DNA of 43,811 bases from Boseongicola sp. (lineage in GTDB: Bacteria > Pseudomonadota > Alphaproteobacteria > Rhodobacterales > Rhodobacteraceae), in assembly GCA_028824715.1 (NCBI GenBank), contig JAPPCV010000089.1, forward strand, positions 1 to 43,811, read 5' to 3'. Both the position numbers and the translations under genes were made by a program. Of the stretch, positions 10,244 through 14,669 are shown piece after piece (position 1 is the first letter of the stretch; the number at the start of each line of letters is the position of its first letter). Below the pieces are notes generated by a model that was not told where the DNA came from, made no database searches, and was given only the letters and a program-made list of their open reading frames with translations.

Positions 10244-10525
10244 GATGCATCCCCCTCGCGTGTCGCCACGGGGCAATATCCGGCGTCCGCCTTCCGTGCA
10301 AGGCGTGCAGCGGCGAGACTAGGCCATGGAGTGCGGGCGATCTGTCAATGGCGCGAGGCGGAGGCCGGGCACGTCATTGGTCGCATCCCGGCCGGATCCG
10401 GCGTCAGGGCGACGAGGAACGGCACCTCCACCCGAACGGCCCGCGGATTCGTTCCCCGTGCCTCGACTTCGCGGGCAGGCCGGCGAGGTGCTCGAACCCG
10501 GCAGGAGCGGGAACACACATTTTTT

Positions 10526-10550
10526 GGGGCTTATGACGAATAGGCACAAA
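10526..10550 (+). repeat. Left terminal inverted repeat of the IS1595-family element
   Basis: The 25-base left end begins GGGGCTTATGACGAATAG and differs from the right end at one position (G here, T in the inverted right copy). It directly follows the candidate target duplication CATTTTTT. Confidence 0.88.
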
Positions 10551-10596
10551 ATCCGAGCCGTGTTGCCAAACGCCGGAGCGGCGCTGTGGCGGTCGC

Positions 10597-11112
10597 ATGG
10601 AAGGCATCGGTTTGTTTGGCGTCAGGTTGGTCGTCCGCATGTTCAGGCGTCAGATCATGAGATCGGCTACCGATCGAGGTTGGTGGCAAGAGTGGCTGCC
10701 AGTGTCCGTGCGAGCGGAAATCGTGTGCGAGCTTGCAAGGCGGTGGATCAAATTGGCGCAGGTGCGTGACGGCGATACGCTTTCCTTGCTTGAACAGGCC
10801 GCCGTACTATACGCGAGAATTCGGAACCTTGGTCTTCCCACTCCCGAACCTCAGTACAAGTCAGAAAGCAGCCGACATTCCTTGGGGCGGGCGGTTGCGA
10901 ATCTCAATGCCATGTGTGCTTTGGCGGAGGATGATCGCTTCAGCAAAAGGCTGCTTGAAGACACCAAGGAATTTCTTGAAGTGGTATGCGCCGACCAAAG
11001 GACGAAATACCTGTTTCAACGCGCAGCGGCTTTCACACGCGACGGAATGAAGGCTGACAGACTTTCCCCTAATTTCGCGAGAAGTGAGCCGGTTTCTCCC
11101 GAAACTCCTTGA
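10597..11112 (+). CDS. Hypothetical cargo protein upstream of the transposase
   Basis: A 171-residue frame begins 47 bases inside the left end of the mobile element. The family is not recognised. The sequence is mostly helical in character, with segments such as WLPVSVRAEIVCELARRW and LLEQAAVLYARIRNLGLPTP, and it is rich in Arg and Glu without membrane segments. It could start at ATG 10597 or ATG 10657; neither has a strong ribosome site, and the later start removes an unconvincing Arg-rich leader. The gene ends exactly where the transposase promoter begins, so it is probably transcribed from outside or from the element's left end. Function is unknown. Confidence 0.5.
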   Translation: MEGIGLFGVRLVVRMFRRQIMRSATDRGWWQEWLPVSVRAEIVCELARRWIKLAQVRDGDTLSLLEQAAVLYARIRNLGLPTPEPQYKSESSRHSLGRAVANLNAMCALAEDDRFSKRLLEDTKEFLEVVCADQRTKYLFQRAAAFTRDGMKADRLSPNFARSEPVSPETP

Positions 11113-11138
11113 ATTTTCACGAGAAACATCTATATAAT
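11109..11138 (+). promoter_or_regulatory. Sigma-70-type promoter of the transposase gene
   Basis: TTGAAT (11109-11114) and TATAAT (11133-11138) are separated by 18 bases, close to consensus and strikingly AT-rich against its surroundings. Transcription would begin near 11145, just before the AGGGGGG ribosome site. This rules out ATG 11137, which lies inside the -10 box, and supports ATG 11164 as the transposase start. Confidence 0.75.
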
Positions 11139-11163
11139 GGTCACAACGAGAGGGGGGAGCCGC

Positions 11164-12168
11164 ATGGGCAATTTGCCGGGAAAATCTTTCCGCGAAGGAC
11201 TCAGCTTCATCGAAGTCGCAGACATGTTCAGCGATGAAGACAAAGCACGCGAGTGGATCGCGGAACACCGGTGGCCTGACGGCCCTTGCTGCCCCAAGTG
11301 CGGCTCGTTCAACGTCCAGTGCGACATCAAACACAAGACCATGACGCATCGCTGCCGCGACTGCTGCAGCGGCAAGAGCCGGACGATGTTCAGCATCAAG
11401 ACCGGCACGGTCATGGCAAGGTCGAACCTGAAATATCGCGCATGGGCGGTTGGCATCTACATGTTCATGACGAACATCAAGGGGATTTCATCGACTCACC
11501 TTCGCCGCGAACTCAAGATCAGCCAGAAAGCTGCCTGGTTCATGATGCATCGGCTTCGCAAGGTGTTCGAGGAAGACTCTGAACCGTATTCCGGACCAGT
11601 TGATGTAGACGAAACCTACATGGGCGGCCGCGTCCGCAACCTGAGCAGTGCGAAGCCCAGGGAACGCAAGAGAGCCGGACTTGCACAAGGGCCGAGCGGC
11701 AATACGGTAGTTGTCGGCATGAAGGACTGCGACAGCGGCAAGGTGACAGCGAAGATTGTTCAGAAGACAGACGCTGCGACGCTGCACGGTTTCATCGCCG
11801 ATCACGTTGGCGAAGACGTCACGGTCTATACCGACGAAGCCAGGGCGTACAAGGGAATGCCGTTCGACCACGAGTGCGTCAATCACTCGGTTTCCGAGTA
11901 TGTCCGCGACATGGCCCATACCAACGGCATCGAGTCCCATTGGGCCATGATGAAGCGCGGGCATGAAGGCATCTATCACAAGATGTCCCCAAAGCATCTT
12001 GACCGCTACGTCCAGGAATTCGCGGGACGCCACAACATCCGCAATCAGGACACCATCGACCAGATGAAAGAGACCGTGACCGGGATGGTTGGCAAGCGGC
12101 TTCTGTATCGGGAACTGGTTGCCGACAACGGACTGTCGAACGGGCTGGCGCCTGGCGCGAGATCATGA
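11164..12168 (+). CDS. IS1595-family (ISXO2-like) transposase
   Basis: The 334-residue enzyme has the two-part structure of the family. An N-terminal zinc ribbon (CPKC at 43-46 and CRDC at 64-67) is followed by a DDE-type catalytic domain: Asp149 in VDVDETYMGG, Asp224 in VYTDEARAY, and the Asn254/Glu257 region in HTNGIESHWAMMKRG. It cuts and joins the element ends. ATG 11164 is chosen because GAGAGGGGGGAG lies immediately upstream and the alternative ATG 11137 falls within the promoter. The reading frame is intact with no frameshift. The first cargo gene follows after 37 bases on the same strand, so at least the proximal cargo may be expressed from the transposase promoter. Confidence 0.93.
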   Translation: MGNLPGKSFREGLSFIEVADMFSDEDKAREWIAEHRWPDGPCCPKCGSFNVQCDIKHKTMTHRCRDCCSGKSRTMFSIKTGTVMARSNLKYRAWAVGIYMFMTNIKGISSTHLRRELKISQKAAWFMMHRLRKVFEEDSEPYSGPVDVDETYMGGRVRNLSSAKPRERKRAGLAQGPSGNTVVVGMKDCDSGKVTAKIVQKTDAATLHGFIADHVGEDVTVYTDEARAYKGMPFDHECVNHSVSEYVRDMAHTNGIESHWAMMKRGHEGIYHKMSPKHLDRYVQEFAGRHNIRNQDTIDQMKETVTGMVGKRLLYRELVADNGLSNGLAPGARS

Positions 12169-12205
12169 TCAACAAGGAACCCGTTCTGCCGAGGATGCAC
12201 ATCGC

Positions 12206-12655
12206 ATGGACATCAATTTTGAGGAAGCCGTTGCAACCTGGCTTGTTGCAGACGGGCGGACTTTGATCGCACCTGAATATTCGCTTGGCATTGGGGAGAA
12301 TCCAGCACTGAAGGACCCGGTAAGGTGGCCCGACATTCTCGCGGTTCGCCCGAAGGACAAGCACATATTCCTTTGTGAGGTCACGTGGGGTAAGGACTGG
12401 AGGAAGTTTCGCGATAAAATCGCCGATTACCATGACAGTCTCGACAATATACGCGCAAGCCTCGATCATTGGCTTGGGGTTGGGGACAAGGAATGGCGAA
12501 TATCCGTCTGGTACTTCGTGCCGAAACACCCCCATGTCGGCAAGATCCGGTCAATGAAACCTGACAATGGAATTGGTCTCTACGTCACTTCATTGGAGAC
12601 CATCACGCCGTGGAAATACACTTGGGGATTTCGAGACGCTGGCACAGAGAGCTGA
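12206..12655 (+). CDS. Cargo protein with a nuclease-like WPDILAVR...CEVTW core
   Basis: A 149-residue soluble protein. Residues about 34-56 read VRWPDILAVRPKDKHIFLCEV then TW, a beta-hairpin pattern of hydrophobic-Pro-Asp, about 15 residues, then Glu-x-Thr. This resembles the PD-(D/E)XK nuclease core, except that Thr stands where the catalytic Lys is usual. A basic helix (WGKDWRKFRDKIADYHDSL) follows, as in proteins of that fold. I did not recognise a named family, so nuclease function is inference. The ATG at 12206 follows GAGGA at 12191-12195. The open frame extends further upstream but overlaps the transposase end. It lies within the IS1595 element. Confidence 0.6.
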   Translation: MDINFEEAVATWLVADGRTLIAPEYSLGIGENPALKDPVRWPDILAVRPKDKHIFLCEVTWGKDWRKFRDKIADYHDSLDNIRASLDHWLGVGDKEWRISVWYFVPKHPHVGKIRSMKPDNGIGLYVTSLETITPWKYTWGFRDAGTES

Positions 12656-12729
12656 TGGCGAACGGCGTCTGCCAGGGGCGTACGGACGCAGGAGTTTGGC
12701 AAGCCGTACAACGGACAGAAAGGCGTGAA

Positions 12730-12873
12730 ATGATTTATGGAGTATTGGGTCCGGTGCTGATCACAATGGGCTTGGTGTTGGACGCAATTGGTGCTTTTCT
12801 GGTGGCATCCGTCTTGGTTGTATCCAAGACAGAAGCGGCAGACCGAACCGAGATGACCTGCCAACGAGGATGA
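12730..12873 (+). CDS. Cargo microprotein with one membrane helix
   Basis: A 47-residue frame, MIYGVLGPVLITMGLVLDAI and onward, has a single hydrophobic segment spanning about residues 3-30 and a short polar tail ending TEMTCQRG. GAAAGGCGTGAA lies just before the ATG. It is the first of three very short consecutive ORFs in the IS1595 element. The function is unknown. Its size makes it easy to miss or to over-call, but the hydrophobic segment and ribosome site are reasonable evidence. Confidence 0.45.
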   Translation: MIYGVLGPVLITMGLVLDAIGAFLVASVLVVSKTEAADRTEMTCQRG

Positions 12874-12907
12874 TCCTGCTCGCCACGAAACCCCGGCGGT
12901 CACGGCC

Positions 12908-13021
12908 ATGATGAGAGACAGGAAGCGCGGATTGTGGGGCGCTTCCATATTGGTCTTAGGATTTGGTCTTCAGATAGTCGGCGTATGGTACGGCTGGTTT
13001 TCATTGGAAGGAAAGCCATGA
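12908..13021 (+). CDS. Cargo microprotein with one membrane helix, coupled to the next ORF
   Basis: A 37-residue frame, MMRDRKRGLWGASILVLGFG continuing LQIVGVWYGWFSLEGKP, has a basic N-terminus and a single hydrophobic helix at residues about 9-30. Its TGA at 13019-13021 overlaps the ATG of the following ORF (ATGA), a common coupling arrangement. The positive-inside pattern predicts a cytoplasmic N-terminus. It is too short for most gene callers. Function is unknown. Confidence 0.45.
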   Translation: MMRDRKRGLWGASILVLGFGLQIVGVWYGWFSLEGKP

Positions 13022-13206
13022 CCAAGAAGGCCAAGATCCGCAAGCGTCAGCCGCTGCCGAAGCCGGTGACGATTACGCTGCCGGACAACAGATTCCAGCC
13101 AAGGAAGGCGGACATGGACAAGGAATATGACATGCCGGGAGCGTCGGCGGAACGGATCAGGCAGGCGTTCTTTCGTCCGGTGATCGTCCGGCGCGAGCGG
13201 CCCTGA
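13018..13206 (+). CDS. Small basic cargo protein (MTKKAKIRKRQPLPKPVTITLP)
   Basis: A 62-residue protein. The first dozen residues are strongly basic, followed by PLPKPVTITLPDNRFQPRKA, an acidic DMDKEYDMPGAS segment and a terminal FFRPVIVRRERP. The PKPVTITLP...QP.KA...DMPG...FFRPV pattern looks like a conserved small hypothetical protein I associate with mobile elements in alphaproteobacteria, perhaps with an antitoxin-like or regulatory role, but I cannot name the family. The ATG has GGAAGGAAAG just upstream and overlaps the preceding stop codon. Confidence 0.6.
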   Translation: MTKKAKIRKRQPLPKPVTITLPDNRFQPRKADMDKEYDMPGASAERIRQAFFRPVIVRRERP

Positions 13207-13487
13207 GCGCGCTGCAATTGAGTACACATTCCGGAGCGACCTTCGAGAATCTGCATCCGGGCACTGAGCCGGGGATCCTACTTCCAGGCTTTCGTACGTC
13301 TGGGGGGACTGGCCAGACTTCCAATCGGAGTCAAGACGGCCGTGACGCAAGGCTCGTTCATTGAAAGCAGCATGGCAAACCGGGCAAAATTCGTCCCGAC
13401 ACACGAATTCCCCTTTACAGCCGCGTTCCAAGCCACTTAGTTTCGTACGGAAACTCATGGGGCACTTTGAAACAGTTGGCAACACAT

Positions 13488-13766
13488 ATGCCTGAAGTGA
13501 ACTATCTAAAGGTCATTACGCCAGTGCTCAAGAAGCAGCTTGCACCGGCGCGGGTGCTTGATGTTCGGGTCGATGAGGCTTTTGACTCCGATGGCGATCC
13601 AATCCTTCGAATACAGGTCGTGTACGAGGCAGAGCAGGACAGACTCGATCCGTTCAAGGTCGTTAGCTTGATACGGCACCTGCGCGGGCCATTGAACGAA
13701 GAAGGTTCGGAACGCTTTCCCGTCCTGTCGTTCATGACAGAAGAAGAGGCACATGCTGCCACATGA
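13488..13766 (+). CDS. Small cargo protein, partner of the HEPN-like gene
   Basis: A 92-residue protein whose core alternates charged and hydrophobic residues: DVRVDEAFDSDGDPILRIQV, then VYEAEQDRLDPFKVVSLIRHL. This gives the appearance of a compact alpha/beta fold. It overlaps the next gene by 14 bases, so the two are almost certainly cotranslated. The arrangement (small protein first, HEPN-like second, overlapping) resembles type II toxin-antitoxin or HEPN/MNT-like modules, but no nucleotidyltransferase GSxxRG motif is present. An in-frame TTG at 13467 is an alternative start. Confidence 0.65.
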   Translation: MPEVNYLKVITPVLKKQLAPARVLDVRVDEAFDSDGDPILRIQVVYEAEQDRLDPFKVVSLIRHLRGPLNEEGSERFPVLSFMTEEEAHAAT

Positions 13767-14229
13767 CCTGATTGCTACCGCTAGGAAACTTGCGACCATT
13801 GGCGAGGTAGGTGCCCCGAAACAGTCAGACCTCAAAAGAGCGCAGAGTACCGTCTACTACGCCATGTTCCATGCCATTTGCCGAAATTGCGCCGATACAC
13901 TGGTCGGCAAGATCAAGACCCCTAGCAGAAGCCAGGGCGCATGGAACCAGGCATATCGGGCCGTGAATCATGCACATGCCAAGAAGCAATGCATGCAGAC
14001 ACCATCGTTGAGCTTTCCTGATGCAATACAGGATTTCGCCAACTTGTTCACGGCATCCCAGGAAAAACGGCACAAGGCCGACTACGATCCTTCGTTCAGC
14101 TTGACGCGGCGCGACGTCCTCACGGAAATAGAATCGGCCGCTGTGGCAATCGCCAGGTTCCAGAAAGCGCCAAGAAAGGACAGAACGGCGTTTGCGGTAT
14201 GGACTGTGGCACAATACCGGCGAGACTGA
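13753..14229 (+). CDS. HEPN-like domain protein
   Basis: The 158-residue all-helical protein contains SDLKRAQSTVYYAMFHAICR (residues about 25-44), the typical first-helix signature of HEPN domains. A conserved-looking RHKADYDP at 106-113 follows. HEPN nucleases use an Arg-x(4-6)-His motif; the segment YRAVNHAH (Arg69 to His75, spacing of five) is a candidate, though not certainly the catalytic pair. The family often cuts RNA as a toxin or defence effector, or serves as a non-catalytic binding domain. It overlaps the preceding gene by 14 bases and ends 112 bases before the right repeat of the element. Confidence 0.65.
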   Translation: MLPHDLIATARKLATIGEVGAPKQSDLKRAQSTVYYAMFHAICRNCADTLVGKIKTPSRSQGAWNQAYRAVNHAHAKKQCMQTPSLSFPDAIQDFANLFTASQEKRHKADYDPSFSLTRRDVLTEIESAAVAIARFQKAPRKDRTAFAVWTVAQYRRD

Positions 14230-14341
14230 TCACTCTGTAACGGCGCAGAAGGACCAGCCCGTCATTCACGACGACTCCGTACGCACCGATTATGCCGAAG
14301 TTCGATAGATCGTCCACCGCGAACCGAACGGCTAGATGCGG

Positions 14342-14366
14342 TTTGTGACTATTCGTCATAAGCCCC
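14342..14366 (-). repeat. Right terminal inverted repeat of the IS1595-family element
   Basis: The inverted copy of the left end, matching at 24 of 25 positions. It is followed by CATTTTTG, which matches the left flank CATTTTTT at seven of eight positions. Confidence 0.88.
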
Positions 14367-14635: not shown

Positions 14636-14669
14636 GCGCGAGCGCCGGGCAAGTGCCCGGCGCTCGCGC
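14636..14669 (+). promoter_or_regulatory. Perfect 15-bp stem-loop in the crotonase leader
   Basis: GCGCGAGCGCCGGGC (14636-14650) and its exact complement (14655-14669) flank the 4-base loop AAGT. The stem ends 21 bases before the crotonase ATG and just ahead of the AAGGGAGG ribosome site. No T-run follows on either strand, so it is not a standard intrinsic terminator. It could be an mRNA-stabilising structure, an attenuator element or a REP-like repeat. The remainder of the 324-base interval from the IS1595 element to this gene has no recognisable gene. Confidence 0.65.

What the first reader, a model, noticed from the sequence alone, without database searches (positions are those of the whole stretch)
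10526..14366. A 3.8-kb IS1595-family element carrying seven cargo ORFs
The sequence shows 25-base inverted ends matching at 24 positions, flanks CATTTTTT/CATTTTTG, and an intact zinc-ribbon DDE transposase. Seven other ORFs on the same strand fill about 70% of the element. IS1595-family members are known to carry passenger genes, but this combination (nuclease-like protein, two membrane microproteins, small basic protein, HEPN-like pair) looks like a mobile defence or addiction module. The link between cargo and function is inference.
Basis: partly seen in the sequence, partly recalled or inferred. Interest (0 to 1): 0.7.

Follow-up and report, generated by a model that had tools for sequence, protein, structure and literature searches.

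The report
Transposon with swappable cargo and helper
A real jumping gene of the IS1595 type carries a small set of extra genes; relatives keep similar ends, a related transposase and a small conserved protein near one end while the genes in between differ, often being DNA-cutting defence systems.

Summary
The element is real. Window 10526-14366 has 25-bp ends matching at 24 positions (0 expected), an intact IS1595 transposase, a 7/8 target duplication, and an unoccupied site in one congener. Another congener holds a 1.5-kb element whose two 22-bp ends equal the window's right end, with an 8/8 duplication; it keeps the transposase tail and the 62-aa "small basic protein" (SP) around different genes.
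So SP is probably backbone, not cargo. It occurs in 18 of 32 complete elements compared (11 of the 18 served as seeds), its stop within 65 bp of the right end in 14. It co-varies with transposase and ends. Among 7 held-out hits outside the family, 5 have a transposase nearby.
Restriction-modification genes were found in 12 of 20 elements scanned. The window's cargo is a HEPN protein with an overlapping partner, an ORF that looks nuclease-like by eye, two membrane micro-ORFs and an unknown ORF. The HEPN pair also lies near repC on a Rhizobium plasmid.
Kind: transporter IS, known. The bracketed cargo site and small protein look new. Defence or addiction remains inference.

The parts
10526..10550 (+). 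left terminal inverted repeat GGGGCTTATGACGAATAGGCACAAA
   Evidence: 24/25 to the right end; the right-end version (22 bases) is at both ends of L263 with 8/8 TSD
10518..10525 (.). left target-site copy CATTTTTT
   Evidence: 7/8 to the right copy; left target copies of 31 elements are 73% AT against 39% for flank 8-mers
10597..11112 (+). ORF u171, 171 aa, unknown; between left end and transposase
   Evidence: only weak hits (NCBIfam 0.02, Pfam 0.078, both far under cut-off); no relative in the loci searched
11164..12168 (+). IS1595 transposase, 334 aa, Zn ribbon + DDE
   Evidence: PF12762 2.9e-35, PF12760 4.7e-8; NCBIfam 6.5e-48; alignment A1
12206..12655 (+). ORF nuc149, 149 aa, nuclease-like by eye only (cargo)
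   Evidence: no library hit; relative in L039 (65% over 106 aa), same strand and downstream of a weak transposase remnant; dN/dS 0.09 with saturated dS
12730..12873 (+). 47-aa membrane-like micro-ORF (cargo, unproven gene)
   Evidence: sequence only; searched without its first Met
12908..13021 (+). 37-aa membrane-like micro-ORF (unproven gene); stop overlaps the next start (ATGA)
   Evidence: sequence only; searched without its first Met
13018..13206 (+). SP62: small protein shared by many IS1595 elements, probably backbone
   Evidence: 80% aa identity over 60 residues to the SP of L263, dN/dS 0.31; family hits
13488..13766 (+). HEPN partner, 92 aa
   Evidence: directly upstream of HEPN in 52 of 80 locus rows; model pLDDT 94.6, no clear fold match
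13753..14229 (+). HEPN-fold protein, 158 aa; overlaps partner by 14 nt
   Evidence: model pLDDT 95.4, nearest solved 2hsb, profile 6e-7 to 2hsb and 4.8e-5 to 9xbd, Pfam HEPN at E <= 0.01 in 16 of 68 relatives
14342..14366 (-). right terminal inverted repeat GGGGCTTATGACGAATAGTCACAAA
14367..14374 (.). right target-site copy CATTTTTG

Best explanation
The locus is a cargo-bearing IS1595-family transposon (a 'transporter IS'). Shown: its ends, transposase, near-perfect duplication, an unoccupied site in a congener, and a relative with the same ends and different inner genes. Inferred mechanism: the DDE transposase binds the two ends and inserts the unit into AT-rich 8-bp targets. Many elements of this group have a backbone of left end, transposase, a 50-70 aa small protein SP, and right end, with foreign genes mostly between transposase and SP, often in one apparent operon with both. 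SP is most likely an accessory or regulatory protein of transposition, possibly DNA-binding (some members carry an RGRP stretch that looks like an AT-hook, by eye and from memory), not cargo. In the window SP is not last: a HEPN-plus-partner module lies between SP and the right end. That module most likely works as an addiction or abortive-infection pair (inference).
For: Ends and transposase. Unoccupied site. L263: 22/22 ends, 8/8 TSD, transposase tail 88%, SP 80%, different genes between. SP in 18 of 32 complete elements (11 of these were model seeds, 7 not), stop <=65 bp from the right end in 14 of 18. Mantel transposase-SP r 0.36, p 0.002, n 16; SP-end r 0.46, p 0.0007. SP hits in 8 of 295 family genomes, all among the 45 with the transposase, 0 of 250 without; 5 of the 8 genomes supplied rows of the query, 3 did not. 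Fully held-out class search: 7 hits outside the family, 5 with a same-strand transposase in the fetched stretch, 3 with end pairs of 21-22/22 and 8/8 TSD. dN/dS of SP 0.05-0.39 in 8 pairs. In 8 of the 18 SP elements the methylase- or restriction-type ORF starts in a 4-nt overlap with, or directly at, the transposase stop. Restriction-modification genes in sisters. HEPN pair 2.3 kb downstream of repC on a conjugative Rhizobium plasmid, partner confirmed by hhalign 8.4e-17.
Against: 14 of 32 complete elements show no SP, so it is not universally required. SP and transposase share the same nearest neighbour in only 9 of 16 elements, and the window is one of the 7 that do not. Co-variation with cargo was not measured. 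TSDs are AT-rich without SP too (0.78 without, 0.69 with), against SP as the AT-targeting factor. Of 16 SP stretches fetched, two had a transposase listed before; of the other 14, one shows a same-strand remnant, three only an end-like site, ten neither. In L183 the SP hit lies on the strand opposite to the transposase. In several SP elements (e.g. L169, L170, L171, L227, L228) large inner ORFs lie on the other strand, so 'one operon' is not general. GC3 of SP is nearer to the transposase than the largest cargo ORF in 12 of 15 elements but does not correlate with it (r 0.05). The window's SP lies 1160 bp from the right end. The HEPN protein lacks the usual catalytic spacing in its conserved columns, so toxicity is uncertain.
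Confidence: 0.72

Rival explanations
1. SP is cargo-related: it regulates or completes the carried restriction-modification or toxin systems and travels with them.
For: It is the last gene after restriction-modification genes, with overlapping starts in several elements.
Against: Also present with other cargo (L169 lipoprotein-like ORFs by eye, L175 FGE-sulfatase, L263 aspartyl protease, window HEPN); co-varies with transposase and ends; L180, L230 and L033 have close SPs but carry Eco29kI, NotI and D12 proteins.
Confidence: 0.15
2. Ordinary IS1595 transporter IS with hitch-hiking genes; SP is a short passenger fixed by descent without a role.
For: Transporter ISs with passengers are an accepted class (PMC9330008, passages); 14 of 32 elements lack SP; ten SP stretches have neither transposase nor end nearby.
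Against: dN/dS of SP 0.05-0.39 over 8 pairs and the place next to the right end in other families of the class point to selection.
Confidence: 0.2
3. The window element is a composite relic: an element ending after SP, later extended by a HEPN module and a new right end, and no longer mobile.
For: SP to right end 1160 bp against <=65 bp in 14 of 18; L031 and L233 have the order partner-HEPN-SP-right-end-like sequence; TSD 7/8; no second full copy found.
Against: Ends match at 24/25 and the transposase is open with its conserved residues; 7/8 TSDs are also seen in L033, L180, L230.
Confidence: 0.25
4. The HEPN pair is a housekeeping or RNA-processing pair without toxic action.
For: Invariant columns R69, H73, R106, D110 do not give the usual Rx4-6H spacing (motif recalled); the partner matches no antitoxin or nucleotidyltransferase family convincingly.
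Against: Scattered spread over Alphaproteobacteria, Chloroflexota, Rhodothermales, Acidobacteria, transposon and plasmid locations.
Confidence: 0.3

Closest known systems
IS1595 family (ISXO2-like DDE transposase with Zn ribbon)
   Same: transposase domains, GGG-starting ends, 8-bp target duplication
   Different: 3.8 kb with seven other ORFs; a small protein SP shared with many relatives
Transporter IS (tIS)
   Same: single IS-type transposase, passenger genes inside one pair of ends (definition seen in passages of PMC9330008)
   Different: recurrent cargo site between transposase and a conserved second gene
HEPN toxin-antitoxin / HEPN abortive infection pairs
   Same: HEPN fold, two overlapping genes, mobile and plasmid contexts
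   Different: partner not an MNT by Pfam, PDB sequence or clear fold match; catalytic spacing not canonical
Type II restriction-modification systems on mobile elements
   Same: carried by sister elements, in 8 SP elements directly after the transposase
   Different: absent from the window element

Membership tests
IS1595 family | IS1595 DDE transposase domain and zinc ribbon | tested here: met
   PF12762 2.9e-35 and PF12760 4.7e-8, both above cut-off; NCBIfam 6.5e-48
IS1595 family | terminal inverted repeats and 8-bp target duplication | tested here: met
   24/25 ends; 7/8 in the window; 8/8 in L263 with the same ends
IS1595 family | listing in ISfinder under a subgroup | not testable with these tools
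   ISfinder not available
Transporter IS | passenger genes not needed for transposition inside the ends | tested here: met
   inner genes differ in L263; sister elements carry restriction-modification and other genes; that they are dispensable for transposition is inferred
Transporter IS | unit moves as a whole | tested here: inconclusive
   unoccupied site in 1 of 7 congeners, the other 6 uninformative; no second full copy (one search scored only the best 2 candidates a genome)
HEPN toxin-antitoxin | HEPN fold | tested here: met
   pLDDT 95.4; 2hsb prob 1.00, TM 0.55/0.66, though E 0.038 and no hit at E <= 0.001; profile 6e-7; Pfam HEPN in 16 of 68, not in the window protein itself
HEPN toxin-antitoxin | Rx4-6H catalytic motif (recalled) | tested here: inconclusive
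   invariant R69, H73 (three residues between) and R106, D110
HEPN toxin-antitoxin | MNT-type antitoxin partner | tested here: not met
   no nucleotidyltransferase family among 17 weak Pfam families; 1ylq, a putative nucleotidyltransferase, only rank 41 by fold
Restriction-modification carrier | methyltransferase or restriction enzyme in the window element | tested here: not met
   no such hit in Pfam, NCBIfam, PADLOC

The most novel reading that the evidence does not exclude
A clade of IS1595 transposons has a two-gene backbone: a transposase at one end and a dedicated 50-70 aa accessory protein at the other, bracketing a cargo site into which whole defence operons (type II restriction-modification, HEPN pair, others) are swapped and often expressed with the transposase, making a small modular shuttle for bacterial immunity genes.
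Probability: 0.5. Interest if true: 0.68.

Novelty: new variant of a known kind. Interest (0 to 1): 0.56.

Why it matters
Restriction-modification and toxin-antitoxin genes move often, but their smallest vehicles are poorly known. A compact transposon whose backbone keeps a second conserved protein while its interior is replaced would help explain how such genes spread, gives a sequence signature (SP plus right end) to find such carriers, and offers a testable transposition helper. Nine paper searches with IS1595, passenger, cargo, restriction, transporter-IS, subgroup or sponge terms showed no title or abstract start about this small protein, nor did the passages I opened of six listed papers; the other listed papers were not opened, no search term named the protein itself, and the library is partial. 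Siguier et al. 2009 on the IS1595 family (recalled) was not looked up; the 2014 review I looked up is not held.

Tried and rejected
Copies of the whole element: only the window copy in its genome, none full-length in 295 family genomes, with only 2 candidates a genome scored. The window's ends in 8 genomes of the genus: only G296 besides the window, plus one single 3-mismatch site in G300. Profile of ends (PWM): built from 64 ends, but the window's own ends score low (5.7 and 9.4) and the lowest training end is negative, so it was used only as a hint. By-eye resemblance of the P63C-type protein N-terminus to the SP core: not picked up by the SP model at E 5, dropped. The partner as degenerate nucleotidyltransferase: not supported. 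SP as the factor behind AT-rich targets: not supported. SP on plasmids: no match for the one member tried. The window transposase on plasmids: 6 records, all under 60% identity. GC3 test of backbone versus cargo: weak. A weak nuc149 match (0.011) on the opposite strand of L263 was disregarded. Rows dropped: one search printed 66 transposase rows; 31 were taken as complete (29 with GGR-type ends, IR of at least 18/24 and TSD of at least 7/8; L187 with 24/24 and 6/8; L032, right end shifted by one base by hand), and 35 were left out as cut by contig ends, decayed or without convincing ends, partly judged by eye (L218 has an end pair at both contig ends but no flanks). L037 and L213 look like one insertion in two species; L034/L050, L044/L066, L047/L052, L048/L233 are the same contigs seen twice. 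Two of the 18 SP elements (L170, L187) were left out of the Mantel test because my ORF picker gave no transposase protein for them.
Full report
Observation. The 25-base ends at 10526-10550 and 14342-14366 match at 24 positions; a pattern scan with up to 3 mismatches finds only these two in the window, none in 100 shuffles, and only these two in the 5.24-Mb genome. The flanks are CATTTTTT and CATTTTTG. The transposase 11164-12168 matches the IS1595 DDE domain (2.9e-35) and zinc ribbon (4.7e-8) and NCBIfam IS1595 (6.5e-48); D149, D224, E257 and the cysteines C43, C46 and C64 are invariant in an 8-row alignment. The seven other ORFs cover 56% of the element.

Insertion history. Eight genomes of the genus were searched with 726 bases of left flank. 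G295 matches to within 12 bases of the element boundary; five others match only positions 7-509 and one only 41 bases. In G295 the left flank runs straight into the right flank without an element. The site has diverged there (roughly CCTTTCGG where the window has CATTTTTG), so the exact single copy of the target is not visible. The flanking genes look like ychF and an enoyl-CoA hydratase; these names are recalled from the translations, not from a search. The genus includes a genome with a 4,415-bp contig that corresponds to VXPN01000173.1, titled Boseongicola sp. SB0662_bin_57; that such bins come from sponges is recalled.

A relative with the same ends. In G296, contig 144, a 1,510-bp element has GGGGCTTATGACGAATAGTCAC at both ends (22/22) and AAAGAAAT on both sides (8/8). 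It lacks the first two thirds of the transposase; the last 117 residues are 88% identical, SP is 80% identical over 60 residues, and 27 bases at the right end are identical. The ORFs in between are an aspartyl-protease-like one (PF13975, 4.1e-6, just under its cut-off) and a 159-residue open frame without a hit. So the inner genes differ while transposase tail, SP and ends are kept.

The wider group. Transposase profile A1 matches 45 of 295 family genomes at 1e-40 (at most 7 candidates a genome scored) and 8 of 8 genomes of the genus. From 66 transposase rows in 152 loci I took 31 elements as complete and added the window; they are 2.1-6.9 kb long. Their target copies are 73% AT, against 39% for 8-mers of the same flanks (31 sites, p 5e-5). 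I scanned 30 cargo proteins from 20 elements against Pfam (27 of the 90 ORFs listed, one more of L032 and two of L263; chosen partly because they looked recognisable). Restriction or methyltransferase hits came from 12 of the 20: L032, L037, L038, L168, L171, L214, L215 (N6/N4 methylase; with HNH in L037, L168, L171, T5orf172 in L038, Mrr in L215), L033 (D12), L180 (Eco29kI), L181 (MT-A70, BglII), L230 (D12, NotI), L231 (C5 methylase). L040 and L236 look like L038 and L181 but were not scanned. Other hits: P63C and DUF3800 (L043), DUF4258 and a sub-cut-off HTH (L228), FGE-sulfatase (L175), outer-membrane barrel (L170), aspartyl protease (L263). No Pfam hit: both ORFs of L041, the scanned ORFs of L177 and L226, and one ORF each of L032, L175, L214, L231 and L263. 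PADLOC hit 6 of 10 of these proteins (REase_II for the L032, L180 and L231 nucleases, MTase for L231 and L215, DUF3800_VII 3e-4 for L043) and missed the BglII-like, NotI-like, DUF4258 and protease ones.

The small protein. A model from 12 seeds, run over 28,733 open frames of 152 loci and the window, found non-seed members at E below 1e-4 in L042, L180, L181, L185, L236, L242, L228, L170, L031, L222, L223, L033, L171 and L183. All but L031 were fetched for an IS1595 transposase or a match to the window element near one; L031 has a right-end-like sequence; in L183 the hit is on the strand opposite to the transposase. Among the 80 loci fetched for HEPN only L048 had one, and L048 (same contig as seed L233) also has a right-end-like sequence. 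Of the 32 complete elements 18 have SP, 11 of them seeds; the stop lies 4-65 bp from the right end in 14, and 289, 303, 344 and 1160 bp away in L170, L171, L032 and the window. In 8 of the 18 (L032, L033, L181, L214, L215, L230, L231, L236) the next ORF starts in a 4-nt overlap with the transposase stop or directly at it; in others large ORFs lie on the opposite strand. Distances between SPs follow those between transposases (Mantel r 0.36, p 0.002, n 16) and between ends (r 0.46, p 0.0007), but the nearest neighbour agrees in only 9 of 16, and not for the window; relatedness of genomes and co-variation with cargo were not controlled.

Where SP occurs. 295 family genomes gave 24 hits in 8 genomes, all among the 45 with the transposase, none among 250 without (at most 22 candidates a genome scored). 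Five of the 8 genomes supplied rows of the query; G059, G109 and G209 did not. A search of 385 genomes of the class gave 7 hits outside the family, in genomes that supplied no query row: 5 have a same-strand transposase in the fetched stretch (L271, L272, L273, L275, L277), 3 of these with end pairs of 21-22/22 and 8/8 duplications; L276 has only an end-like site 44 bp away; L274 only a weak one 745 bp away. Against this, of 16 further stretches fetched, two had a transposase listed already (L262, L263); of the other 14, L250 has a same-strand remnant, L248, L252 and L256 only an end-like site, and ten neither. Some of the ten look decayed, others (e.g. L257) look intact. dN/dS of SP is 0.05-0.39 in eight pairs; for HEPN, partner and nuc149 it is 0.09-0.19, but with dS near saturation (1.5-2.8), so only a rough sign of selection.

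The HEPN pair. The 158-residue protein models with pLDDT 95.4. Its best solved neighbour is the HEPN protein 2hsb (probability 1.00, TM 0.55/0.66, E 0.038; nothing at E <= 0.001), followed among high-probability hits by 2q00 and the HEPN entry 4nqf. A profile of 68 relatives matches 2hsb (6e-7) and the HEPN chains 9xbd (4.8e-5) and 9xbc (3.8e-4); 16 of 68 relatives match Pfam HEPN at E <= 0.01 (best 3.6e-5; the window protein does not), and PADLOC HEPN_IX matches 1 of 68. Of 89 loci examined, 80 gave an open HEPN frame; a partner was found on the same strand in 54 and directly upstream in 52, with a 14-nt overlap as in the window in 23 (four contigs counted twice). The pair occurs in Alphaproteobacteria, Chloroflexota, Rhodothermales and Acidobacteria by record title; for many of the more distant loci no partner was detected. 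HEPN relatives are on 30 plasmids, 27 of them Rhizobium; in pPR5, the one opened, the pair lies 2.3 kb downstream of repC, and the upstream ORF is a partner homologue (hhalign 8.4e-17). The partner models well (pLDDT 94.6) but matches no family or fold convincingly. L031 (interrupted HEPN frame) and L233 have the order partner, HEPN, SP, right-end-like sequence without a transposase; in the window SP precedes the pair. So the module is seen in one complete element and two probable remnants.

Mechanism. Shown: ends, transposase, duplication, an unoccupied site, different inner genes between conserved parts. Inferred: the transposase mobilises the unit; SP assists or regulates it; the HEPN pair stabilises or protects. 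An addiction role fits its plasmid location but is untested, and the catalytic motif is not canonical.

Known or new. Transporter ISs are defined in PMC9330008 (passages). I saw passages only of PMC11092175, PMC7371123, PMC9296519, PMC10214660 and PMC6563490; none mentions such a small protein. The listings showed no title or abstract start on it. The element is a new variant of a known kind.

Noticed in passing
window 10452-10516: An imperfect ~65-bp intergenic repeat just left of the element; a 79% copy in the same genome (C141) and partial copies in G299, G201 and G296.
   Followed up: partly
L041, L043, L045, L177, L178, L179: A sub-group of IS1595 elements without SP whose second ORF (313-347 aa) overlaps the transposase stop; Pfam P63C in the one of L043, no hit in that of L041, the others not scanned. 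Its N-terminus 'IDATFDEVV' resembles the SP core by eye, not by model.
   Followed up: partly
L037 and L213: What looks like the same IS1595 insertion (TSD CAAGGATG) in two congeners, 5285 and 5271 bp long, with a tandem repeat of a 7-residue (about 21-bp) unit at the start of its methyltransferase-HNH gene.
   Followed up: no
L263 1323-2832: A 1.5-kb element with no full transposase and a perfect 8-bp duplication, so a probable non-autonomous derivative.
   Followed up: partly
L228 4287-5064: A DUF4258 plus helix-turn-helix pair, toxin-antitoxin-like, between left end and transposase on the opposite strand: perhaps a second cargo site.
   Followed up: no
window 14636-14669: Perfect 16-bp hairpin with a 2-base loop between the element and the downstream gene; no T-run follows, so not shown to be a terminator.
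   Followed up: no
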